From: Fulvivirga sp.
GTDB lineage: Bacteria > Bacteroidota > Bacteroidia > Cytophagales > Cyclobacteriaceae
Assembly (NCBI GenBank): GCA_028280565.1
Contig: JANQLQ010000288.1
Location: forward strand, 1 to 57,194
Length of the DNA stretch: 57,194 bases
Reading direction: 5' to 3'
The position numbers and the translations under genes were made by a program. Of this stretch, positions 3,924-15,771 are shown one piece after another (position 1 is the first letter of the stretch; the number at the start of each line of letters is the position of its first letter). The notes under the pieces are model-generated. The model saw only the letters and a program-made list of their open reading frames with translations, was not told the origin of the DNA and did not search any database.

Positions 3924-5186
3924 CTAAATCAAGTAATGAAACAGATCCGGCTGATCATTCACATACTCGTACCGGAATTTTTTCTTCGCCATCCGTTCTA
4001 TCAAGGGGGCAAGGTCTTCCCGGTGCTGTAATTCGATCCCGATCAGGGCGGGGCCACGTTCGCGACTGTTTTTCTTAGAATATTCGAAGTGGGTGATATC
4101 GTCATGGGGGCCAAGCACATCGGTAAGGAACTCGCGTAAGGCACCGGCGCGTTGCGGGAAGTTGACAATAAAATAATGCTTTAATCCTTCATACAACAAG
4201 GAGCGCTCTTTGATCTCCATGGTGCGGGTGATATCGTTGTTGCTTCCGCTTACAATGCATACGACATTCTTTCCCTTGAGTTCATCGGCCAATGGCTCAA
4301 GTGCCGCTAGTGAAAGTGCACCGGCAGGTTCTACTACGATCGCCTGCTCATTGTACAGCCTTAGGATCTCTTTACATACCCGCCCCTCTGGTACCGTAAT
4401 GACCCGGTCCAGGTTCTCTTTGCATACTTGGAACGTGATATCTCCCACTCGTTTTACAGCAGCGCCATCGACAAACTTATCGATCTTATCCAGTACTACC
4501 ACCTCTCCTTTTTCGATAGAAGCTTTCATAGCGGGAGCGCCTTCCGGTTCTACCCCGATGATCTTGGTACTGGGTGAAAGAACTTTAAAATAGCTGGAAA
4601 CCCCGGCGGCCAATCCCCCTCCACCGATAGGGAGGATCAAATAATCAATGGGCTCATGGCTATCTTCCAGGATCTCCTTCCCCACTGTACCTTGCCCTTC
4701 AATGATCTTAGGATCGTCAAACGGTGGGATAAACACGGCATTCTTTTCTTTGGAGAACTCGATGGCTTCAGCAAAGGCATCATCGAACGTATCGCCGGTC
4801 AGCACTACATCCACAAACTCTTTCCCAAACATTTCCACCTGGTTCACTTTCTGGCTTGGCGTGGGGGAAGGCATATAGATCGTACCGTGGATACCCTTTT
4901 TGCAACAGGCCATGGCCACACCCTGCGCATGGTTCCCGGCGCTGGCGCAGACTACACCATTTTCCAGTTGGTCCAGTGGTATTCCTTGTATTTTATTATA
5001 CGCTCCCCTGATCTTGTACGAACGCACCACCTGCAGATCCTCCCTTTTTAAGGAGATATTTGCCCCAAACCGTCCTGATAACAACGGATCAGGCAATAGC
5101 GGCGTACGGATAGTCACTCCTTGTAAGCTCTCCGCAGCCGCTAAGATGTTGTCTATGGTTATTTTTATGGATGTTACCTCCGGCAT
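3924..5186 (-). CDS. ilvA: threonine ammonia-lyase (threonine dehydratase), biosynthetic
   Basis: This PLP enzyme converts threonine to 2-oxobutanoate and ammonia, the first step committed to isoleucine. The 420 residues show the Schiff-base lysine in SYKIRGA (K58), the phosphate-binding glycine loop PIGGGGLAAG near residue 190, and SGSNND near 315. A single ACT-like regulatory domain covers about the last 85 residues, as in the short Bacillus and Bacteroidota type rather than the two-domain E. coli enzyme. Feedback control by isoleucine is expected but not provable here. It is the last ilv gene of the block, 46 bases after ilvC. Confidence 0.97.
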   Translation of the reverse strand: MPEVTSIKITIDNILAAAESLQGVTIRTPLLPDPLLSGRFGANISLKREDLQVVRSYKIRGAYNKIQGIPLDQLENGVVCASAGNHAQGVAMACCKKGIHGTIYMPSPTPSQKVNQVEMFGKEFVDVVLTGDTFDDAFAEAIEFSKEKNAVFIPPFDDPKIIEGQGTVGKEILEDSHEPIDYLILPIGGGGLAAGVSSYFKVLSPSTKIIGVEPEGAPAMKASIEKGEVVVLDKIDKFVDGAAVKRVGDITFQVCKENLDRVITVPEGRVCKEILRLYNEQAIVVEPAGALSLAALEPLADELKGKNVVCIVSGSNNDITRTMEIKERSLLYEGLKHYFIVNFPQRAGALREFLTDVLGPHDDITHFEYSKKNSRERGPALIGIELQHREDLAPLIERMAKKKFRYEYVNDQPDLFHYLI

Positions 5187-5232: not shown

Positions 5233-6279
5233 CTAATTCTCTTCTGGCCTGAGCTTTCTTACTTCGCTCCCGGCTTTCCACATTTCAGACTCGCGCAGCT
5301 CGGATAGCTCAGCCTCCAGCTTTTCGCGGTAGTCTTCTTTGCTATTGGAATCGATGGACTTCTGTGCTTCATTACCCGCTGCTACTTCGGCGTAAAGCTC
5401 TTCAAACACAGGCTTGGAAGCATCTTTGAACTTCTTCCACCAATCCAAGGCTCCGCGCTGTGCAGTGGTAGAACAATTGGCGTACATCCAATCCATACCA
5501 TTTTCTGCTACCAGCGGCATCAGGGACTGGGTTAGTTCCTCTACGGTTTCGTTGAAAGCCTCTGACGGAGTGTGCCCATTAGAGCGCAACACTTCGTATT
5601 GGGCAGCGAAAATACCTTGGATAGCTCCCATCAGGGTACCACGTTCGCCGGTAAGATCACTGAACACCTCTTTTTTAAACGTAGTCTCAAAAAGATAGCC
5701 TGAACCTACGCCTATTCCTAAAGCAACTACCCGCTCTTTGGCCTTGCCAGTGGCATCTTGGAAAATAGCATAGCTAGAGTTCAGTCCCCTGCCTTCCAAA
5801 AACATCCTTCTCAGCGAGGTACCGGACCCTTTGGGAGCCACCAGGATCACGTCTACATCGTCCGGCGGTATGATGCCGGTCCTTTCTTTATAAGTGATCC
5901 CGAAACCATGAGAAAAATAAAGGGCCTTTCCAGCGGTTAAATTCTTTTTTACGGTGGGCCAAAGTGCAATCTGGCCTGCATCTGACAGCAAGAACTGGAG
6001 GATCGTCCCCTTTTGGCAGGCCTCTTCGATCTCGAAAAGCGTTTCTCCCGGCACCCAGCCATCGGCTACGGCTTTGTCCCATGTTTTTGAATTTTTACGC
6101 TGTCCTACGATCACGTTGAACCCGTTATCTTTAAGGTTAAGCGCCTGCCCCGGGCCTTGAACGCCATAACCGATCACGGCTATGGTTTCTTCCTTAAGTA
6201 CCTCTCGAGCCTTTTCTAAGGGAAACTCTTCCCTAGTTACTACTTCTTCGGTGACGCCACCAAAATTGATCTTCGCCAT
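5233..6279 (-). CDS. ilvC: ketol-acid reductoisomerase (NADP+)
   Basis: This enzyme carries out the Mg-dependent alkyl shift and NADPH reduction of acetolactate or acetohydroxybutyrate. The Rossmann motif GYGVQGPGQALNLKDNG lies near residues 38-54. The cofactor loop GQRKNSKTWD fits NADPH use. The knotted C-terminal domain carries the metal-site motif DLTGERGTLMGA. At 348 residues it has the length usual in Bacteroidota. It lies 16 bases after ilvN and 46 before ilvA in the same transcript. Confidence 0.97.
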   Translation of the reverse strand: MAKINFGGVTEEVVTREEFPLEKAREVLKEETIAVIGYGVQGPGQALNLKDNGFNVIVGQRKNSKTWDKAVADGWVPGETLFEIEEACQKGTILQFLLSDAGQIALWPTVKKNLTAGKALYFSHGFGITYKERTGIIPPDDVDVILVAPKGSGTSLRRMFLEGRGLNSSYAIFQDATGKAKERVVALGIGVGSGYLFETTFKKEVFSDLTGERGTLMGAIQGIFAAQYEVLRSNGHTPSEAFNETVEELTQSLMPLVAENGMDWMYANCSTTAQRGALDWWKKFKDASKPVFEELYAEVAAGNEAQKSIDSNSKEDYREKLEAELSELRESEMWKAGSEVRKLRPEEN

Positions 6280-6295
6280 TTTTATATAGGGTTAA

Positions 6296-6841
6296 TTATT
6301 GTGTTATAATTTCTTTTGAATGTGTTTCTAAATATTGCAGGTGTTGCGAGAAAGTACTGAATGTCCTGCTCAACGACACTCGCCCGGACCTCACAAACCC
6401 TTGGATCTTGAAAGGTTTTAGCTCTTCGAAGAGCTGGTGGGTCTGTTCTTTATGCCCCGTTTTTTCGATGATCAAAAACTCACCGATCTCTTCCTTGATA
6501 AAAGCCCCGTTCGTGTTTACTACAGCTTCCAGCGCCACCCGGTCAATGGTTTCGTCCAGGCGGATCTTGTACAGTGCTATCTCACTGTAAATGGTATCTT
6601 CATCTGTAAAACAAAACGCCTTGAGTACTTCCACCTGCTTTTCGATCTGCTTTACTACCTTTTTGGTCTTGTCCTCTACCTCGTGGATCACCACGGTAAA
6701 CCTGTGGATGCCTGTATACTCGGACTCCGAGGTGGTGAGGCTTTCGATATTGATATGGCGCTGTGTAAAAAGGGAGGTGATCCTGCTCAACAGGCCTATT
6801 TTGTTTTCAGTGAATATGACTATGGTGAATATCTTTTTCAC
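6296..6841 (-). CDS. ilvN: acetolactate synthase small (regulatory) subunit
   Basis: This subunit activates the IlvB catalytic subunit and makes it sensitive to valine. The 181 residues begin with an ACT domain: FTIVIFTENKIGLLSRITSLF, then HINIESLT. A second ALS small-subunit domain occupies about residues 85-165 (GAFIKEEIGEFLIIEKTGHK). The gene follows ilvB after 68 bases on the minus strand, the standard arrangement for the holoenzyme. Confidence 0.96.
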   Translation of the reverse strand: MKKIFTIVIFTENKIGLLSRITSLFTQRHINIESLTTSESEYTGIHRFTVVIHEVEDKTKKVVKQIEKQVEVLKAFCFTDEDTIYSEIALYKIRLDETIDRVALEAVVNTNGAFIKEEIGEFLIIEKTGHKEQTHQLFEELKPFKIQGFVRSGRVSLSRTFSTFSQHLQYLETHSKEIITQ

Positions 6842-6909: not shown

Positions 6910-8643
6910 TCATTCCAGCCGTATCTCGTCTACAGACGCCCCGCTGGGTACCATGGGAAATACGTTGTCTTCTTTTTCTACTACCACTTCTAATAAATAG
7001 GGTCCCGGGTGATCGAACATGGCCTTTAAAGAGCTATCCAGCTTATCCCTTTCCGTAACCCGCGAAGCCTCTACCCCAAAGCCCTTGGTCACCGCTACAA
7101 AATCAGGGTTAACGAGTTCTGTAGAGGAATAGCGCTTATCAAAAAATAGCTGCTGCCACTGCCGTACCATCCCTAAGAATTCATTGTTGAGTATAATAAT
7201 TTTTACGGCTGCCTGGACTTGGAAAATGGTACCCAATTCTTGGATGGTCATTTGAAACCCCCCGTCGCCGATGACGGCCACTACCTCTCGCCCCGGGGCG
7301 CCCAATTTAGCGCCTAGTGCGGCTGGAAGGCAAAAGCCCATCGTTCCCAATCCCCCGGAGGTAATGTTGCTTTTTGATTTTTTAAAATGCGCGTAACGGC
7401 AGGCCACCATTTGGTGCTGCCCTACATCCGTAACGACGACCGCATCACCGTCCGTCAAGTCATTCACTCTCCGGATCACCTCGCCCATAGTAAGCCCTTC
7501 TTTCGAGGGATGAAGCTCGGCTTGGATCACTTTTTCGTGTTCGATCCTGGCATGCTCATGAAACTTGTCAAGCCATTCGGTATGTTCATTGGCATGGCAA
7601 TGCTCCGTTAACAAGCGCAAGGATTCTTTAGCGTCGCCAAGGACGGCCACTTCTGTTTTCACATTTTTATCAATTTCCGCCGGGTCGATCTCCAAGTGTA
7701 TGACTTTGGCTTGCTTCGCATAGGTACTGACATTGCCCGTCACCCGGTCGTCGAAACGCATTCCTACGGCGATCAACACATCGCATTCGTTGGTAAGTTT
7801 ATTAGGGCCGTAGTTGCCATGCATACCCAACATCCCCACATTCAAGGGGTGGTCTGTAGGCATAGCAGAAAGGCCTAGCAGGGTCCATGCCGCTGGAATG
7901 CCTGTTTTTTCAACGAAGGCGGCCAGCTCCTTTTCTGCATGTGAAAGGATCACTCCTTGCCCGAAAAGAACATAGGGTCTTTTAGCCGTATTGATAAGTT
8001 CTGCTGCTGCTTTTACACTTTCAATATCTATGCTAGGTTTGGGGTTATAGCTTCGGAACCCCCGGCACTTTTTATAGTCGAAATTAAAGGTGGCAAATTG
8101 GGCATCCTTCGTGATATCCAGTACTACCGGGCCCGGCCTTCCCGAGGTGGCTATGTAGAAGGCCTTGGCAATGGCCGCAGGTATTTCTTCCGGCTTAGTC
8201 ACCTGGTAATTCCATTTAGTCACCGGCATAGACAGGCTGATCACATCGGTCTCTTGGAAGGCATCCGTGCCGAGCATGGCAAAAGGCACCTGCCCCGTAA
8301 TGCAGACCAGTGGCGTACTGTCAATTTTAGCATCAGCTAGCCCTGTAATAAGATTGGTAGCGCCCGGCCCGGAAGTAGCAAATACCACTCCCGGCTTTCC
8401 CGATACACGTGCATACCCTTGGCCGGCATGTATAGCACCCTGCTCATGGCGTGTCAGCACATGATGCACCCTGTCTAGGTAGCCATAGAGTGCATCGTAT
8501 ATCGGCATAATGGCTCCCCCGGGATAGCCGAAGATCGTGTCCGTATCTTCAGCCAGTAAGGAAAGTATTACCGCCTCGGCGCCGGTGATCACTTCGTTCC
8601 TTTTCTCAACTTCTTTTTCTACCGTGAGTGTCTGCATGTTCAT
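6910..8643 (-). CDS. ilvB: acetolactate synthase large (catalytic) subunit
   Basis: This ThDP-dependent enzyme condenses pyruvate with pyruvate or 2-oxobutanoate. Of 577 residues, the N-terminal PYR domain shows [15 protein letters not shown] and the catalytic glutamate in [15 protein letters not shown]. The middle TPP_M domain includes [11 protein letters not shown]. The C-terminal PP domain has the Mg/ThDP motif [12 protein letters not shown]...[11 protein letters not shown]. Its ATG overlaps the TGA of ilvD by four bases (ATGA), so translation of the two is probably coupled. Confidence 0.97.
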
Positions 8644-10319
8644 TGGTCAGTTACACATCCTTCGGATGCCGATGAAACAAATCGTGAATATTTATAAAGC
8701 ACCCCTCTTTGCTTTTTAAGGGGGCGTGGTTGCCATTCTTTTTGCCTTTGGGCTAATTCTTCGCTGCTTACCAAAATCTCGATGGTATTTTCCTTTGCAT
8801 CGATGCGGACCAAGTCCCCATCTTTTACCAGGGCGATAGGGCCTCCGTCCTGGGCTTCAGGAGTGATGTGCCCTACTACAAAACCATGCGTACCTCCTGA
8901 AAAGCGGCCGTCAGTGATCAAGGCCACTTCTTTCCCTAACCCGGCCCCCATAATAGCGGCGGTAGGCTTAAGCATTTCTGGCATGCCAGGTCCTCCTCTA
9001 GGCCCTTCATAGCGTATCACTACCACATCGCCGGACGTAACATTACCGGCTGTGAGCTCATCGTTTGCCTCAAACTCGCTATCAAATACCCGGGCGGGTC
9101 CTTCGAAAAATTCTCCTTCTTTTCCCGTGATCTTGGCCACTGCTCCACCCGGCGCCAGGTTGCCCTTTAATATGCGAATGTGGCCGGTTTCTTTAATTGG
9201 CTGATCTACCGGGTGTATGATATCTTGCCCTTCATGTAGTGCAGGTAGATCGGCTAAATTCTCTTCTAATGTCTTCCCCGTGATGGTCATGCAACTTCCA
9301 TCCAACAGTCCTTCAGACAGCATCATTTTCAGCACACTCGGGGTACCGCCAACGTTGTGCAGGTCCTCCATTAAATATTTCCCGCTGGGTTTCAGGTCTG
9401 CCAAATAGGGAGTATCAGCACTGATCCTGGTGAAATCATCTAAAGTAAGCTCCAGTTCAAATGCCCGGGCAATGGCCAACAAGTGTAATACCGCGTTTGT
9501 AGAGCCTCCTAGAATCGTTATGAGTCGTATAGCATTTTCCAACGAAGCTTTGGTAACGATATCTCTCGGCTTTAGGTCATGTTCTAAAAGATAACGCACC
9601 GCCTGTCCCGCTCGATAGCATTCTTCTTCTTTCTCCGTACCCCCAGCAGGGTTGGAAGCATTGTACGGCAGGCTTATACCCATCGCTTCGATCGCCGAAG
9701 CCATGGTGTTGGCCGTATACATGCCGCCACAGGCACCCGCCCCTGGGCAAGCATTCATGACCACTCCTTCATAATCTTCTTCGCTGATGGTGCCCGCTAT
9801 CTTTTGTCCTAATGCTTCAAAAGCGGAGACTACATCCAGCTTTTTGTCTTTGTAACACCCAGGAGCTATGGTACCTCCATAGACTAACACAGCTGGTCGG
9901 TTCAATCTCCCGATGGCGATCATAGCCCCGGGCATGTTTTTATCACAGCCTACAATGGTCACAAGGCTATCGTAAGACTGTGCGTTTACCACAGTTTCTA
10001 TGGAATCCGCAATAACATCACGCGAGGGCAAGCTGTAGCGCATGCCCGGCGTACCCATAGAGATGCCGTCGCTTACTCCTATCGTGTTAAAGATCAAACC
10101 CACAAGGTCTTGATCGTTAGTCCCTTTTTTAACCGCTTTCGCCAGGTCATTCAAATGCATGTTGCAGGGATTACCTTCAAAACCAGTGCTTACGATGCCC
10201 ACCTGTGGTTTTAAAAGATCTTCACTTGAAAGCCCTATGGCATGCAACATCGCTTGGGCCGCCGGCTGCGTAGGATCTTGGGTGACATGGCGGCTATATT
10301 TATTTAAAACTTTTGTCAT
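8640..10319 (-). CDS. ilvD: dihydroxy-acid dehydratase
   Basis: This Fe-S enzyme dehydrates dihydroxyisovalerate and dihydroxymethylvalerate to the 2-oxo acids. Likely cluster ligands are C52 (NPCN), C125 ([10 protein letters not shown]) and C197 ([17 protein letters not shown]), the set typical of IlvD/Edd enzymes. The C-terminal [15 protein letters not shown] motif is intact. The 559 residues match the family. It begins 3 bases after the ilvE stop and ends overlapping the ilvB start. Confidence 0.97.
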
Positions 10320-10322
10320 GCT

Positions 10323-11213
10323 TTAGACGATCGTCAGGCCTTGGTATTCATTGTATCGTACCTTTTGCCGGTACATTAGGTAAAGGCTGTGGCCGGCAGA
10401 ATCCAACCATGAGCCTTTGAATTTTTCACCATTGATGGATTCTATGGGAGCTATCTCGCTGGCGGTACCGGCAAAAAAGGCATTGTCAGCACTGTAGACT
10501 TCCTCCATGGTCATATGCTTTTCTGTTACGTGAATGCCCAGGTCTTTCGCTAATTCCATGACAGTAGCACGCGTGATGCCCGGTAGTATGTTGCCTGCTG
10601 GAGGAGTGTAAAGGATGCCCTCTTTTTCCACGAAAAAATTTGCTCCCGGGCCCTCTGCTACATTGCCATGCATGTCCAGCAGTAAAGCTTCGTCGTAACC
10701 CAGCTTTTTGGCTTCCGTGGTGGCTAAGATCGAGTTGGTATAATGTCCCACTACTTTGGCCTCCACATGACAAGACCTAGGATTAGGCCGCTGGTAAGAG
10801 GACACCATTACTTTTAAAGGCTTATCACCCAGGTATTTTTCCCATTTCCATGCGGCCATAAATACATGTACCTCATCGGTAGGGGTGAGTGACATATTTG
10901 CCCCAAGGTAGGCCAAAGGTCGTATATAGGCATCTGTTAGATCATTCTTATCTAACAACTCGTAGGAAATGTGGATCAACTCCTCCACGGAATACGGCAG
11001 ATCGATGTGCATTTTTGTGGCAGAATAATGCAGGCGTTCAAAATGGTCTTTCGCTTTGAACACGTTGCAGCCGTCTGCATTCTGATAAGCCCTAATTCCT
11101 TCGAACACTCCATTGCCGTAATGCATAGTCTGGTTATACATGCTGGCCTGGCCTTCACTGGCTTGGATCCATTTTCCATCCAGGAATACGATGCTGTCTT
11201 GATTGTAGTACAT
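10323..11213 (-). CDS. ilvE: branched-chain amino acid aminotransferase
   Basis: This class IV PLP aminotransferase makes the last step to Val, Ile and Leu. In its 296 residues, the PLP lysine sits in VEAKVVGHYTNS, followed by the family signature EALLLDMHGNVAEGPGANFF and later GITRATVMELA. It is the first gene after the leader peptide and attenuator, so it and everything downstream should respond to charging of isoleucyl and valyl tRNA. Confidence 0.96.
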   Translation of the reverse strand: MYYNQDSIVFLDGKWIQASEGQASMYNQTMHYGNGVFEGIRAYQNADGCNVFKAKDHFERLHYSATKMHIDLPYSVEELIHISYELLDKNDLTDAYIRPLAYLGANMSLTPTDEVHVFMAAWKWEKYLGDKPLKVMVSSYQRPNPRSCHVEAKVVGHYTNSILATTEAKKLGYDEALLLDMHGNVAEGPGANFFVEKEGILYTPPAGNILPGITRATVMELAKDLGIHVTEKHMTMEEVYSADNAFFAGTASEIAPIESINGEKFKGSWLDSAGHSLYLMYRQKVRYNEYQGLTIV

Positions 11214-11244: not shown

Positions 11245-11311
11245 AAAAAAAGCGCCATCCGGGGGGATGGCGCCTTAATTTTCAATTTTATTTTGATATC
11301 ACCAGTCCCCC
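11245..11311 (-). promoter_or_regulatory. ilv transcription attenuator: terminator plus competing antiterminator
   Basis: The terminator is a 9-bp GC-rich stem, GCGCCATCC (RNA 5' arm 11265-11273, 3' arm 11252-11260), with a 4-base loop followed by T7 (11251-11245). Upstream, GGGGGACTGG (11311-11302), at the end of the leader peptide reading frame, can pair with CCATCCCCC (11270-11262) of the terminator arm: five G-C pairs, A-T, one bulged C, then TGG/CCA. A ribosome reaching the leader stop codon would cover that strand and let the terminator form. A ribosome stalled on the earlier Ile/Val codons would leave it free. This is the classical attenuation design; the pairing was read by eye. Confidence 0.85.
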
Positions 11312-11373
11312 TTCGCTGTCATGTTAATGACGCTAACAATTACTAGGACGACTATGATATTGATACTCTTCAT
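11299..11373 (-). CDS. ilv operon leader peptide (attenuation)
   Basis: This 24-residue reading frame begins MKSINIIVVLVIVSVINM and ends with MTAKGDW and TGA. Five Ile, five Val and one Leu make up 11 of 24 residues, nine of them within residues 6-16. It lies 85 bases upstream of ilvE, followed at once by the antiterminator and terminator. The composition matches the amino acids made by the downstream genes. It is read here as the control peptide of the attenuator and is too short for usual gene callers. Confidence 0.85.
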   Translation of the reverse strand: MKSINIIVVLVIVSVINMTAKGDW

Positions 11374-11388
11374 TCTTAAATCTCTTGA

Positions 11389-11419
11389 TAAAGGTAATTA
11401 AATGGTTTTTATAAAAGCA
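11389..11419 (-). promoter_or_regulatory. possible promoter upstream of the ilv leader
   Basis: On the minus strand TACCTTTA (11396-11389) matches the Bacteroidota TAnnTTTG element in 7 of 8 positions. TTG lies about 20 bases upstream. The start of transcription would fall just before the leader ATG, giving a very short 5' end. If correct, the ilv genes have their own promoter in addition to read-through from leuB. Confidence 0.3.
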
Positions 11420-11446
11420 ATAGTGACCGGCAATTTTTTTCATACC

Positions 11447-12541
11447 TTATGAATTTACGGATGACAATTCATGTATCGTTTCTACGACCTTGTCCCCTAC
11501 TTCTTCCGTAGTCTTAGCGTTCCCAGGATTTATATCCTCGGTCACAAAACCCTTATCCACCACATTCATGACCGCCTTTTGGATGACCTTGCTTTCTTCT
11601 ACTAAGCCAAAAGCATATTCCAATAGCATGGCCGCTGAAAGTATAGCTCCAAAGGGATTGGCGATGTTCTTCCCTGCGGCTTGTGGATAAGATCCGTGGA
11701 TCGGTTCAAACAGGCTACGCTCAGCCCCAATAGAGGCGGAAGGTAGCATCCCCAATGACCCCGAGATCACGGAAGCCTCGTCTGTAATGATATCACCAAA
11801 CATGTTTTCCGTAAGTACTACATCAAAATACTTAGGGTTTTGTATGATCTTCATGGCGGCATTATCTACAAACATGAAGTCAAGCGTTATGCTGGGATAG
11901 TCTTTTGCCAGTTCCTGGACGGTTTCCCTCCACAGCCTGGAAGTAGCCAGCACATTAGCCTTATCCACCAGTGTCACTCGCTTACCCCGGTTGGCGGCAG
12001 CCTCGAAAGCCAGCTTGCTTATTTTTAAGATCTCTTCTTTTGAATAGTTGCAAGTGTCAAAAGCTTTGGTCCCATCTTCTGAACGGCCCCGGGGCTGTCC
12101 AAAATAAATTCCACCGGTAAGCTCCCGGAACACGACAAAATCCGCCCCCTTGATCACCTCTTCTTTCAGCGGAGAAATAGGAAGCAATGCTTCATAGCTG
12201 GTCACGGGTCGTACATTGGCAAATAGGCCCAACTTCTTGCGCATAGCCAGCAGGCCTTGCTCAGGTCTTACCTTGGCTTTGGGGTCGTCGTCGTATTTAG
12301 GGTGGCCGATAGCTCCAAACAAGATGGCATCCGCTTTTTTACAAACTTCTTCTGTCTCGGGGGGGAAGGGATTGCCAGTGGCATCGATGGCAGCCGCACC
12401 GACCAAGGCTTCTGTGTAATCAAATTCATGTTCATACACTTCAGCAATGGCGCTTAGGGCTTTCACACCTTGCGACGTCACCTCCGGTCCTATCCCGTCC
12501 CCGGGTAGTATCGCTATATTTTTTTTCATTTTATTCATCAT
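11447..12541 (-). CDS. leuB: 3-isopropylmalate dehydrogenase
   Basis: It oxidises and decarboxylates 3-isopropylmalate to 2-oxoisocaproate with NAD+. The 364 residues show IAILPGDGIGPEV at the start, substrate motif RPEQGLLAMRKKLGLFANVRP, VFRELTGGIYFG, the catalytic-lysine segment VDKANVLATSRLWRE and the metal/NAD segment ENMFGDIITDEASVISGSLG. Three close ATGs are possible (12541, 12538, 12529). The last gives the usual MKKNIAILPGDG start and leaves room between a hairpin ending at 12542 and the start codon. Confidence 0.96.
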   Translation of the reverse strand: MMNKMKKNIAILPGDGIGPEVTSQGVKALSAIAEVYEHEFDYTEALVGAAAIDATGNPFPPETEEVCKKADAILFGAIGHPKYDDDPKAKVRPEQGLLAMRKKLGLFANVRPVTSYEALLPISPLKEEVIKGADFVVFRELTGGIYFGQPRGRSEDGTKAFDTCNYSKEEILKISKLAFEAAANRGKRVTLVDKANVLATSRLWRETVQELAKDYPSITLDFMFVDNAAMKIIQNPKYFDVVLTENMFGDIITDEASVISGSLGMLPSASIGAERSLFEPIHGSYPQAAGKNIANPFGAILSAAMLLEYAFGLVEESKVIQKAVMNVVDKGFVTEDINPGNAKTTEEVGDKVVETIHELSSVNS

Positions 12542-12599: not shown

Positions 12600-13199
12600 T
12601 CATCTTGCTGCTACAAGACGAAACTCCTCGAAATTTTCAATTTCACTTTTTTTGCTGAGCAGGAAGTCGATATCATCGAATCCCTGCTGCAAGCAATACT
12701 TTTTATATGGATTTATTTCAAATTTTTCTTTCATATCGGTGCCAGGCACGCTGATCTCTTCGTCTTCTAAACTCACTTTGATTTGGAGCGAAGGATCCTC
12801 TTCAAGCTTGGAAAACAAGGCCTGCAGGAAATTTTCGTTGACTTGAACCGGGAGCAACCCATTATTCAACGCATTGTTTTTGAAAATATCAGCAAAGAAG
12901 CTGGATACCACTACTTTGAAGCCATAATCATAAATCGCCCATGCCGCGTGTTCCCTGCTGGAACCACACCCGAAGTTTTTACCCGCCACCAATACCTGCC
13001 CGGTGATCCCCGGCTGGTTAAGGATAAAATCGGGGTTAGGTATATCCCCTTCCAAATAGCGCCAGTCCCTGAACAGGTTATCACCAAAGCCTACACGGTC
13101 CGTGGCTTTTAGAAAACGGGCAGGTATGACTTGGTCCGTATCCACATCGGTCAAGGGCAAGGGTACGCATCTGGATATCAATGTCTCAAACTTTTCCAT
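12600..13199 (-). CDS. leuD: 3-isopropylmalate dehydratase small subunit
   Basis: This is the swivel-domain subunit of isopropylmalate isomerase, which moves the hydroxyl group of 2-isopropylmalate. The 199 residues contain [13 protein letters not shown] near residue 19 and the conserved [16 protein letters not shown] near 73. It is 5 bases downstream of leuC, its partner subunit, and in the same transcript. Confidence 0.96.
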
Positions 13200-13204
13200 A
13201 TTCT

Positions 13205-14599
13205 TCAGTTCAGCATTTCTCTAACATCCGTAATATGACCATTGATGGCCGCGGCGGCGGCTGTCAACGGGCTTGCCAGCATCGTACGCGCCCCGGGGCC
13301 TTGCCTGCCTTCAAAATTCCGATTAGAAGTAGAAATACAATATTTACCTCTCGGGACTTTATCTTCGTTCATCCCTAAGCATGCGGAACACCCTGGCTGT
13401 CGAAGTTCGAAACCGGCTTCTGCCAGCACACGGTCCAGCCCCTCTTCAATCGCTTGTTTTTCTACCTGCTTGGAGCCTGGCACGATCATGGCGTTCACAT
13501 GGCTGGCCTTCTTCTTGCCTTTGACCAGTTCTGCCACCATCCTCAGATCTTCGATCCGAGAGTTAGTACAGCTCCCGATGAACACATAATCTATTTTTTG
13601 TCCCAGCAGTTGGCTTCCTCCTTGGAGGTCCATATACTCCAACGCCTTTTCCAGGGTAACATCGGCTTGGCCATTTGCCACGGGGATACTACCTGTTATT
13701 CCTATGCCCATACTAGGATTGGTGCCATAGGTGATCATGGGTTCGATATCTCCTGCTTTGAAGTAGATCTCCTTGTCAAAAACCGCACCTTCATCGGTCT
13801 TGAACGTTTTCCAATGCGCCAGCTTCTTATCCCACTCTTCTCCCTTAGGCGCAAACTGCCTTCCCCGGATGTACTCGAAGGTAGTTTCATCCGGGGCGAT
13901 CATTCCTCCCCGGGCACCCATTTCGATGCTCATATTACAAATGGTCATACGGGCCTCCATGGATAAAGAGGTGATGGCTGACCCACAAAACTCAACGAAA
14001 TATCCTGTGCCACCGCTTGTCGAGATCTGCGAGATGATGTAAAGGATGATGTCTTTAGACACCACACCATTTTTTAAGGTGCCATCCACTTGTATTTTCA
14101 TAGTGTTTGGCTTGCGCTGAAGCACGCATTGTGTAGCCAATACTTGCTCTACTTCACTAGTGCCGATACCAAATGCAATGGTACCAAATGCACCGTGTGT
14201 AGAGGTATGGCTATCTCCACAGACTATGGTCATGCCGGGCTGTGTAATACCGAGTTCGGGCCCTATTACATGGACAATCCCTTGATAGGGGTGTCCCAAA
14301 CCATATAATTCTACGCCAAATTCCTCGCAGTTTTTCACCAAGGTATCCACCTGGTGCTTGGATAGCGCGTCTTTTATGGGCAGGTGTTGATCCTTGGTGG
14401 GTACGTTGTGATCGGCCGTGGCTATGGTTTGACCGGGCCGTCGAACACCAATATCTCTTTTTCGAAGCCCTGCGAAAGCCTGCGGGCTCGTTACCTCGTG
14501 GATAAAATGCCTATCGATATACAAGACTTGCGGCCCATTTTCGATGGTATGAACCACGTGGCTATCCCAAATCTTATCAAATAATGTCTTAGGTTCCAT
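13205..14599 (-). CDS. leuC: 3-isopropylmalate dehydratase large subunit
   Basis: This is the aconitase-type catalytic subunit with a [4Fe-4S] cluster. Its 464 residues contain [25 protein letters not shown] (cluster Cys) and [14 protein letters not shown] (the two further cluster Cys), then [11 protein letters not shown]. Length and order match the family. It lies 11 bases after leuA and 5 before leuD. Confidence 0.97.
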
Positions 14600-14610: not shown

Positions 14611-15771
14611 TTATGCATTCACATGGGTGTAGCCCTCGACCAATGCCCGGAGCTCTGGGTCATTCACTACGTTGATCTCGTCTGCCAGTTTCAAAAAGCG
14701 GCCATAGGTTTCTTCCAGCTCATCTTTGCTAAGCTGAACCCCTATTTTACCCAGCCTGAAGTTCAACGCCGCCCGCCCGCTGCGAGCTGTAAGGATAATA
14801 CTCGATTTGTTCACGCCAACCTCCGCAGGGTCTATGATCTCGTAGTTATCGCGGTTTTTGATCACACCATCTTGGTGAATACCGGAGGAGTGCGCAAAAG
14901 CATTGGCGCCTACAATGGCCTTGTTAGGCTGGATAGGCATGTGCATGGTTTCAGAAACAAGCTGGCTGATAGGGTATAGCATTTTGGTATTAATACCCGT
15001 TTCAAAGCTGAGCCAATTATGCTTTTTTAATATCATCACCACCTCTTCCAGCGAGGTGTTTCCTGCCCGCTCTCCTACCCCGTTAATGGTACACTCTACC
15101 TGCCGCGCGCCGTTCTGTATTCCGGCTATACTATTCGCAGTGGAAAGCCCCAGGTCGTTGTGACAGTGGGTAGAAATCGTAGCTTTCTCTATTCCTTTTA
15201 CATTGTCTACCAAGTATTTTATTTTTTGTCCATACTCTTCCGGCAAACAATACCCCGTCGTATCCGGGATATTTACTACGGTAGCCCCGGACTGGACTGC
15301 CGCTTCTATTACCTTGGCCAGGAATTCATTATCTGTGCGCCCAGCATCTTCTGCATAGAATTCTACGTCTTCGACGAACTTTTTAGCATAAGAAACGCAC
15401 GCCTTCGTCCTGAGGAGAACTTCCTCTTTGGATATTTTAAGCTTGGTAAATACATGTTGGTCCGATGTACCTAGCCCGGTATGTATCCTAGGCCTTACGG
15501 CTTTTTTTATAGCATTAGCCGCACATTCGATATCTTTTTCCACGGCACGCGACAGGGCGCAGATCGTAGCATCTTTTATAGTGGCCGCCAGGGCTTGAAC
15601 AGACTCAAAGTCTCCGGGACTAGAAATGGGAAAACCGGCTTCTATTACATCCACACCTAGCTCTTCCAGCGCCTTGGCGATCTTGATCTTTTCATTTTTA
15701 TTCAGCCCGCAGCCGGGCACCTGCTCGCCGTCTCTCAAAGTAGTGTCAAAAATCTGGATCTTGTCATTCAT
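14611..15771 (-). CDS. leuA: 2-isopropylmalate synthase, short form
   Basis: It joins acetyl-CoA and 2-oxoisovalerate, the first leucine-specific step. The TIM-barrel is complete: [11 protein letters not shown] at the start, [28 protein letters not shown] metal ligands and [13 protein letters not shown]. At 386 residues it lacks the C-terminal LeuA allosteric dimer domain found in ~510-residue enzymes, so direct leucine feedback through that domain is not expected. A homocitrate- or citramalate-type specificity cannot be fully excluded, but the leuCDB neighbours argue for LeuA. Confidence 0.94.

What the first reader, a model, noticed from the sequence alone, without database searches (positions are those of the whole stretch)
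11245..11373. Textbook ilv attenuator with an Ile/Val-rich leader peptide in a Bacteroidota-like genome
The sequence shows a 24-residue frame with 11 branched-chain residues, a terminator with T7, and an antiterminator strand (GGGGGACTGG) overlapping the leader stop that can pair with the terminator arm CCATCCCCC. By analogy with enterobacterial ilv and leu operons, stalling on Ile/Val codons would allow transcription of ilvE-D-B-N-C-A. It sits inside the ten-gene block rather than before leuA, so leu and ilv halves could be tuned separately.
Basis: partly seen in the sequence, partly recalled or inferred. Interest (0 to 1): 0.72.

Follow-up and report, generated by a model that had tools for sequence, protein, structure and literature searches.

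The report
Ile/Val leader-peptide attenuator of ilv genes
Just before its isoleucine/valine genes this bacterium carries a tiny Ile/Val-rich reading frame and a switchable RNA stop signal that very probably let a stalled ribosome turn the genes on when these amino acids run short; it is a textbook type of switch in a bacterial group where it has been little studied.

Summary
On the minus strand, ATG 11373 encodes MKSINIIVVLVIVSVINMTAKGDW (11 of 24 Ile/Val/Leu). A 12-bp terminator with T7 (11276-11245) starts 22 nt after the stop. A strand at the stop codon (11311-11300) can pair with the terminator's 5' arm.

Comparison supports a ribosome-mediated attenuator:
- A leader is present in 10 of 14 same-genus genomes; of the other four, two are cut off there and two lack a close ilvE.
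- 47 of 95 Bacteroidota regions upstream of ilvD or an ilvE homologue hold 52 leaders.
- Antiterminator strands pair better with their own terminator than with others' (0 of 20000 permutations).
- Ile/Val/Leu codons fade out about 12 nt before the antiterminator strand, as a ribosome footprint predicts.
- The same genome has a His-rich leader before hisG and a Trp-Trp-Trp leader before trpE.

A Bacteroidota-type promoter-like box precedes the leader at the leuB-ilvE junction. No expression was measured, so the mechanism is inferred. The kind is classical and was already suggested for one Bacteroidota species (PMC9723704). Less expected is a codon bias in the leaders (Val GUC: 122 seen, 24 expected).

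Verdict: new member of a known kind.

The parts
11389..11420 (-). promoter-like site of the ilv unit: TTG (11420-11418), 21 nt, TACCTTTA (11396-11389; Bacteroidota -7 consensus TAnnTTTG)
   Evidence: Direct reading. TA(a/c/g)CTTTA lies exactly 15 nt before the leader ATG in 10 of 10 genus-type leaders, the window's included (alignment). Consensus seen in passages of PMC7366714 and PMC9723704. The -33 element was not tested statistically.
11299..11373 (-). leader frame MKSINIIVVLVIVSVINMTAKGDW, stop TGA
   Evidence: recovered by the RNA model at 11373-11245 as the only hit in the own genome at E up to 1 (the window sequence was in the model).
11345..11360 (-). strand 1 (protector): Ile/Val codons that can pair with strand 2, -18.2 kcal/mol
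   Evidence: also in the minimum-free-energy fold. Functional use uncertain.
11300..11311 (-). strand 2 (antiterminator strand), overlapping the leader stop codon
   Evidence: pairs with strand 3 at -19.6 kcal/mol.
11262..11272 (-). strand 3: part of terminator 5' arm and loop shared by terminator and antiterminator
11245..11276 (-). intrinsic terminator (12-bp stem, 4-nt loop) with T7 tract
10323..11213 (-). ilvE, first gene controlled; its ATG is 31 nt after the T tract
   Evidence: NCBIfam ilvE_I; distance.
8640..10319 (-). ilvD
   Evidence: NCBIfam.
6910..8643 (-). ilvB
   Evidence: NCBIfam.
6296..6841 (-). ilvN
   Evidence: NCBIfam acolac_sm.
5233..6279 (-). ilvC
   Evidence: NCBIfam.
3924..5186 (-). 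ilvA
   Evidence: NCBIfam.
11447..12541 (-). leuB, last gene of the leu half (leuA 14611-15771, leuC 13205-14599, leuD 12600-13199)
   Evidence: NCBIfam.

Best explanation
It is a ribosome-mediated transcription attenuator for ilvE-D-B-N-C-A. RNA polymerase starting at the promoter-like site just upstream (or reading through from leuACDB) makes the leader, and a ribosome follows on the 24-codon frame. When charged Ile/Val/Leu tRNAs are plentiful, the ribosome reaches the stop codon, covers strand 2, the terminator 3:4 forms and transcription ends near 11245. When these amino acids are short, the ribosome stalls on the codons 4-16, leaves strand 2 free, strand 2 pairs with strand 3 and polymerase continues into ilvE. 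Shown here: the sequence parts, their conservation, the matched pairing, the footprint-sized spacing and the codon bias. Inferred: translation of the leader, stalling, termination and the response to amino acids.
For: A leader is present in 10 of 14 other same-genus genomes; of the remaining four, two are cut by contig ends and two have only 31-34% identical homologues. Strict detector: 23 of 60 sense, 0 of 60 antisense. Own-arm pairing -14.9 against -9.7 kcal/mol with foreign arms, 0 of 20000 permutations for 52 leaders, also 0 of 20000 for 12 dissimilar representatives and for a second set of 22. Unrestricted search: best partner of the terminator arm lies within 20 nt of the stop in 46 of 52, about 14 expected if uniform. 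I/L/V codons: 71 of 104 at 12-17 nt before strand 2, 18 of 102 at 6-11, 5 of 91 at 0-5; second set 31 of 44, 14 of 44, 4 of 37. RNA model searched without gene context: 44 of 118 family genomes; 27 of the 30 loci opened have ilvE or ilvD downstream (23 of 26 without the four model members). Same genome: His leader (6 His) before hisG and WWW leader before trpE-trpG-trpD, each with terminator and matching antiterminator strand. In the window leader, simulated stalling at any I/L/V codon leaves strand 2 paired to strand 3 (0.91), and a ribosome at the stop abolishes it. T tract to ilvE ATG is 31 nt, too short for a separate promoter of the TTTG-N~20-TAnnTTTG type.
Against: No RNA or protein data. 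48 of 95 regions gave no leader by the detector, so it is patchy in the phylum. Some leaders pair no better with their own arm than with foreign ones (own-arm rank 41 and 40 of 52 for L061 and L063), and in 6 of 52 the best partner of the arm lies elsewhere. The protector hairpin is weak (16 of 52 at z below -2), and in 33 of 52, the window's included, an untranslated leader is predicted to read through, unlike the classical default-off model; that fold is at equilibrium, so it does not settle the order of events. In some searches strand 2 was picked near the stop, so their counts are conditional on that choice. In L005 the leader is 197 nt from ilvE, so a further promoter is possible there.
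Confidence: 0.92

Rival explanations
1. An ordinary terminator ends the leu operon and ilvE has an unrelated start; the small frame is incidental.
For: The terminator does lie between leuB and ilvE, and an intrinsic terminator there would end leu transcripts.
Against: The conserved promoter-like box is before the leader and only 19-36 nt separate T tract and ilvE ATG in the ten loci measured. Matched antiterminator strands and I/L/V spacing have no role in this reading. In many relatives leader and terminator precede ilvE or ilvD with no leu gene found in the stretch held upstream.
Confidence: 0.04
2. The frame encodes a functional hydrophobic micropeptide (membrane peptide or toxin-like) that happens to lie before ilvE.
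For: 11 of 24 residues are I/V/L, which looks like a short membrane helix.
Against: Peptides vary widely and share mainly I/L/V content. The same genome has His-rich and Trp-rich equivalents before hisG and trpE. Synonymous codons are strongly biased, and the stop codon lies in the antiterminator strand.
Confidence: 0.02
3. The terminator is switched by a ligand-, tRNA- or protein-binding leader (riboswitch or T-box type) and not by the ribosome.
For: Terminator and antiterminator alone would fit any such switch.
Against: No Rfam family reaches its gathering score in the window and in the 281-base region only weak scores were seen, T-box not among them. The conserved part is a reading frame with footprint-sized spacing.
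Confidence: 0.02

Closest known systems
E. coli ilvXGMEDA attenuator with leader peptide IlvL (NC_000913.3, 3950322-3950420)
   Same: I/V/L-rich leader, control of ilv genes, terminator downstream (function recalled). Several Bacteroidota leaders share the string ISLV[VI]IS with IlvL.
   Different: Window leader shows no significant residue order shared with IlvL (p 0.22). Different phylum, placed between leu and ilv genes; untranslated default may differ.
Leader-peptide attenuators inferred in Flavobacterium psychrophilum from transcriptome data (PMC9723704; passages seen)
   Same: Same phylum; the passage reports strong clues for leader peptide attenuation upstream of amino-acid biosynthesis operons.
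   Different: The passages seen name no ilv operon and give no comparative test; supplementary tables were not available here.
Predicted branched-chain attenuators in Bacteroidetes/Chlorobi (Vitreschak et al. 2004, recalled, not held; a related Lopatovskaya 2010 study was seen only as a reference entry)
   Same: As recalled, the same kind of element predicted in the same phylum.
   Different: Could not be read, so overlap with this locus is unknown.
Corynebacterium ilvBNC attenuator (PMC11857589, PMC10272879; abstracts in the listing)
   Same: Leader upstream of ilv genes with alternative hairpins, outside Proteobacteria.
   Different: Actinobacteria; different operon and sequence.

Membership tests
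Ribosome-mediated (trp/ilv-type) transcription attenuator | Short frame rich in codons for the operon's end products | tested here: met
   11 of 24 I/V/L before ilvE-D-B-N-C-A; specificity changes with the operon: His before hisG, Trp before trpE.
Ribosome-mediated (trp/ilv-type) transcription attenuator | Intrinsic terminator between leader and first gene | tested here: met
Ribosome-mediated (trp/ilv-type) transcription attenuator | Antiterminator that excludes the terminator and can be masked by a ribosome at the stop | tested here: met
   masking simulated.
Ribosome-mediated (trp/ilv-type) transcription attenuator | Control codons placed so that a stalled ribosome leaves the antiterminator strand free | tested here: met
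   Sharp loss of I/L/V codons about 12 nt before strand 2.
Ribosome-mediated (trp/ilv-type) transcription attenuator | Protector (1:2) hairpin that gives termination without translation | tested here: inconclusive
   Own pairing exceeds swaps (0 of 20000) but only 16 of 52 have z below -2; untranslated window leader predicted to read through.
Ribosome-mediated (trp/ilv-type) transcription attenuator | Leader is translated and termination responds to charged tRNA | not testable with these tools
   Only indirect: biased synonymous codons.
Rfam amino-acid operon leaders (Thr_leader, Phe_leader and others) | Match at or above the family's gathering score | tested here: not met
   No match at gathering in the window; Thr_leader 21.3 bits against 55, Phe_leader 19.2 against 55.
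Homologue of enterobacterial IlvL | Shared residue order beyond I/L/V composition | tested here: inconclusive
   25 of 74 leaders at p<=0.05 by codon shuffle (nucleotide level 17 of 74), rows not independent; window leader p 0.22.

The most novel reading that the evidence does not exclude
Leader-peptide attenuation of ilv genes is an old and widespread control in Bacteroidota, a phylum whose mRNAs lack Shine-Dalgarno sequences. Its control codons are selected for one tRNA isoacceptor per amino acid (Val GUC, read by tRNA-Val(GAC)), so the leaders record both close coupling of ribosome and polymerase and which isoacceptor loses its charge first. The ISLVVIS-like order shared with E. coli IlvL may reflect common descent of the leader.
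Probability: 0.4. Interest if true: 0.5.

Novelty: new member of a known kind. Interest (0 to 1): 0.36.

Why it matters
Ribosome-mediated attenuation needs a ribosome that follows polymerase closely. Finding footprint-sized spacing in dozens of Bacteroidota leaders is sequence evidence that such coupling works, at least on leaders, in a phylum without Shine-Dalgarno sequences. It also gives ready-made, testable sensors of Ile/Val supply, and it explains how the ilv half of a leu-ilv block can be controlled by itself.

Tried and rejected
Rfam search of the window and of the region gave no family at its gathering score. A family reading as homologue of enterobacterial IlvL was tested and left open. 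A search for more copies in the own genome gave only this one at E up to 1. No leader or terminator-like site was seen before leuA, and no terminator was detected in the 3001-base stretch holding thrA and the 472 bases before it. The other two chorismate-binding genes of the genome gave no cognate leader (L138, L140). The sigma-70-type promoter scan lists no site at the leader, as expected for Bacteroidota. Covariation on the MAFFT alignment was not used because strand 2 is misaligned in several rows; pairing was tested by duplex energy and swaps instead. Two of the three model hits without ilvE/ilvD downstream were explained (L122: ilvA operon; L125: aspartokinase/homoserine dehydrogenase with a Thr/Ile leader); L126 looks like a false hit. 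19 of the 49 family hits, the weaker ones, were not opened. Rows dropped: L032 (same contig as L008), L012 (no upstream DNA); L006 had 65 nt upstream only. Of 107 IlvD matches outside the own genome, 60 were fetched, chosen mostly from the best-scoring and few from the 42-46% identical group.

Full report
Check of the observation. On the minus strand of the window the frame ATG(11373)...TGA(11301-11299) reads MKSINIIVVLVIVSVINMTAKGDW, with 5 Ile, 5 Val and 1 Leu in 24 residues. A 12-pair terminator with a 4-nt loop and seven T lies at 11276-11245, 22 nt after the stop; it folds at -20.8 kcal/mol against -7.9 for shuffles. The strand 11311-11300, overlapping the stop codon, pairs with 11272-11262 of the terminator at -19.6 kcal/mol; the terminator hairpin alone is -20.1 and the alternative pairing of leader codons 11360-11345 with strand 2 is -18.2.

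Where it comes from. The window is contig C162 of a 9.05-Mb genome. Fulvivirga marina, whose contig is the one held as a same-genus genome (712099 bases; L008 and L032), has IlvE 76% identical, so the genus is Fulvivirga in the sense of that collection.

Conservation in the genus. Of 14 other same-genus genomes, 10 have an I/L/V leader with terminator upstream of ilvE; G001 and G008 are cut by contig ends (G008 keeps the terminator end), and G005 and G012 have only distant homologues. Nine of the 11 loci, the window's included, show leuB directly upstream; L005 is cut and L017 is arranged otherwise. The antiterminator and terminator change together: GGGGACTGG with CCATCCCC in most, GGGATTGG with CCAATCC in L009, L011 and L019, GGAGG with CCTCC in L005, and, in another genus, GGGAATGGC with GCCATTCC in L013. 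A box TA(a/c/g)CTTTA stands exactly 15 nt before the leader ATG in all ten genus-type leaders, L002 (the window) included.

Across the phylum. IlvD was found in 107 of 148 genomes. I fetched 60 upstream regions. A strict detector found leader plus terminator in 23 of 60 on the sense strand and 0 of 60 on the antisense strand. Together with the ilvE loci, 95 regions gave 52 leaders in 47; 48 regions gave none, and five had two leaders in a row. The control is thus common but patchy, and none was detected in the seven sampled regions with the most divergent IlvD (L092-L098).

Tests of the mechanism. For the 52 leaders the mean pairing energy of the stretch around the stop with the own terminator arm is -14.9 kcal/mol, against -9.7 with other leaders' arms; 0 of 20000 permutations reach this. 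With 12 dissimilar representatives the result is the same, -14.9 against -9.2, 0 of 20000. With the search for a partner opened to the whole leader, the best partner is centred within 20 nt of the stop in 46 of 52, where about 14 would be expected if positions were uniform; 36 of 52 have z below -2 against dinucleotide shuffles. Exceptions are L061 and L063, whose own arm ranks 41st and 40th of 52, and six leaders whose best partner lies elsewhere.

A ribosome footprint in the sequence. Counting codons by distance to strand 2, I/L/V make up 71 of 104 at 12-17 nt, 18 of 102 at 6-11 nt and 5 of 91 at 0-5 nt. A second set of 22 leaders, found by the RNA model and with peptides not in the first set, gives 31 of 44, 14 of 44 and 4 of 37, and again 0 of 20000 permutations for pairing. 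That set is not fully independent, since the model came from the first set and some loci overlap. A ribosome covers about 12 nt beyond the first base of its A-site codon (recalled), so the control codons end where a stalled ribosome would begin to mask strand 2. In the window the last such codon is Ile16. Folding with a ribosome mask gives strand 2 paired to strand 3 at 0.91 for a stall at any I/L/V codon and 0 at the stop; over the set, 52 of 52 exceed 0.5 when stalled and 51 of 52 fall below 0.2 at the stop. Strand 2 was chosen near the stop, so these last counts are conditional.

The protector hairpin. Leader codons pair with the own strand 2 better than with others (0 of 20000), but only 16 of 52 have z below -2, and without a ribosome 33 of 52, the window's included, are predicted to form the antiterminator. 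This equilibrium fold ignores the order in which the strands appear, so I leave open whether an untranslated leader ends or continues.

Gene context without asking for it. An RNA model of 12 leaders found one place in the own genome and 49 places in 44 of 118 family genomes. Of the 30 opened, 27 have ilvE or ilvD downstream, or 23 of 26 without the four that were in the model. L122 has two leaders in a row before a small frame without NCBIfam match and then ilvA; L125 is a Thr/Ile leader, MRNTSTTIITDTIGITRAGEW, before an aspartokinase/homoserine dehydrogenase; L126 shows nothing suitable.

Other leaders in the same genome. hisG is preceded by MQGFNHIHHHHASASIVHGEVMC and a terminator, and trpE-trpG-trpD by MRHNYFNSAWWWYFLQKRK and a terminator; each has a strand at the leader end that pairs with the terminator arm (-15.7 and -16.2 kcal/mol). 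No such element was detected before thrA. The match of codon to operon in one genome is the strongest single argument for amino-acid sensing.

Codon choice. In 62 loci, Val codons of the leaders are GTC 122 times where 23.6 are expected from the neighbouring leu and ilv genes (enriched in 60 of 62), Ile ATT 301 against 176.8 (56 of 62), Leu CTA 27 against 11.3. The dicodon GTC-ATT occurs in frame in 50 of 74 leaders. Among the 38 tRNA hits of the own genome there are two tRNA-Val genes, anticodons TAC and GAC. Biased control codons are known from E. coli leaders and explained there by selective charging (PMC1183508, passages). Applying that here is inference.

Promoter. An exact TAnnTTTG occurs within 60 nt before 20 of 72 leaders, 3.7 expected from base shuffles; at least 5 of 6 matches in 58, 39.4 expected; the median distance to the ATG is 18 nt for boxes with at least 5 matches. 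The consensus was seen in passages of PMC7366714 and PMC9723704. With 31 nt between T tract and ilvE ATG there is hardly room for another promoter of this type in the window.

Prior work. PMC9723704 states, in a passage seen, strong clues for leader peptide attenuation upstream of amino-acid biosynthesis operons in Flavobacterium psychrophilum; PMC7366714 mentions leader-like small frames in Bacteroides thetaiotaomicron (passages). PMC2965389 wrote in 2010 that, to its authors' knowledge, none had been shown outside Proteobacteria and Actinobacteria (passage). I recall that Vitreschak et al. 2004 predicted branched-chain attenuators in Bacteroidetes/Chlorobi; the paper is not held. My searches listed no experimental study of an ilv attenuator in Bacteroidota, in a library that lacks most subscription journals. 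The kind is therefore known, and this is a new, well-supported member.

Resemblance to IlvL. Several leaders share ISLV[VI]IS with E. coli IlvL; 25 of 74 have p<=0.05 in a codon shuffle (17 of 74 at the nucleotide level), but relatives are counted repeatedly and the window leader is at p 0.22. Descent or convergence cannot be told apart here.

Noticed in passing
L137:1196-1319 (+) (own genome C145): His leader MQGFNHIHHHHASASIVHGEVMC with terminator before hisG.
   Followed up: partly
L139:756-882 (+) (own genome C206): Trp leader MRHNYFNSAWWWYFLQKRK with terminator before trpE-trpG-trpD.
   Followed up: partly
L125:1501-1625 (-): Thr/Ile leader MRNTSTTIITDTIGITRAGEW with terminator before an aspartokinase/homoserine dehydrogenase gene in another genus of the family.
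   Followed up: partly
L017, L036, L039, L076, L080, L115, L122: Two I/L/V leaders in a row before one ilv unit, as if two attenuators worked in series.
   Followed up: no
74 leaders: Strong synonymous-codon bias in the leaders: Val GTC, Ile ATT, Leu CTA; GTC-ATT dicodon in 50 of 74.
   Followed up: partly
L141:523-621 against L007, L008, L049, L104 and others: ISLV[VI]IS order shared between E. coli IlvL and several Bacteroidota leaders.
   Followed up: partly
L019:1238-1520: ilvE of G006 is split by a frame break with an in-frame TAA while its attenuator looks intact.
   Followed up: no
window 14611-15771 (-): LeuA has 386 residues and matches only about the first 383 of 516 positions of its NCBIfam model, so the C-terminal part of longer LeuA proteins is absent.
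   Followed up: no
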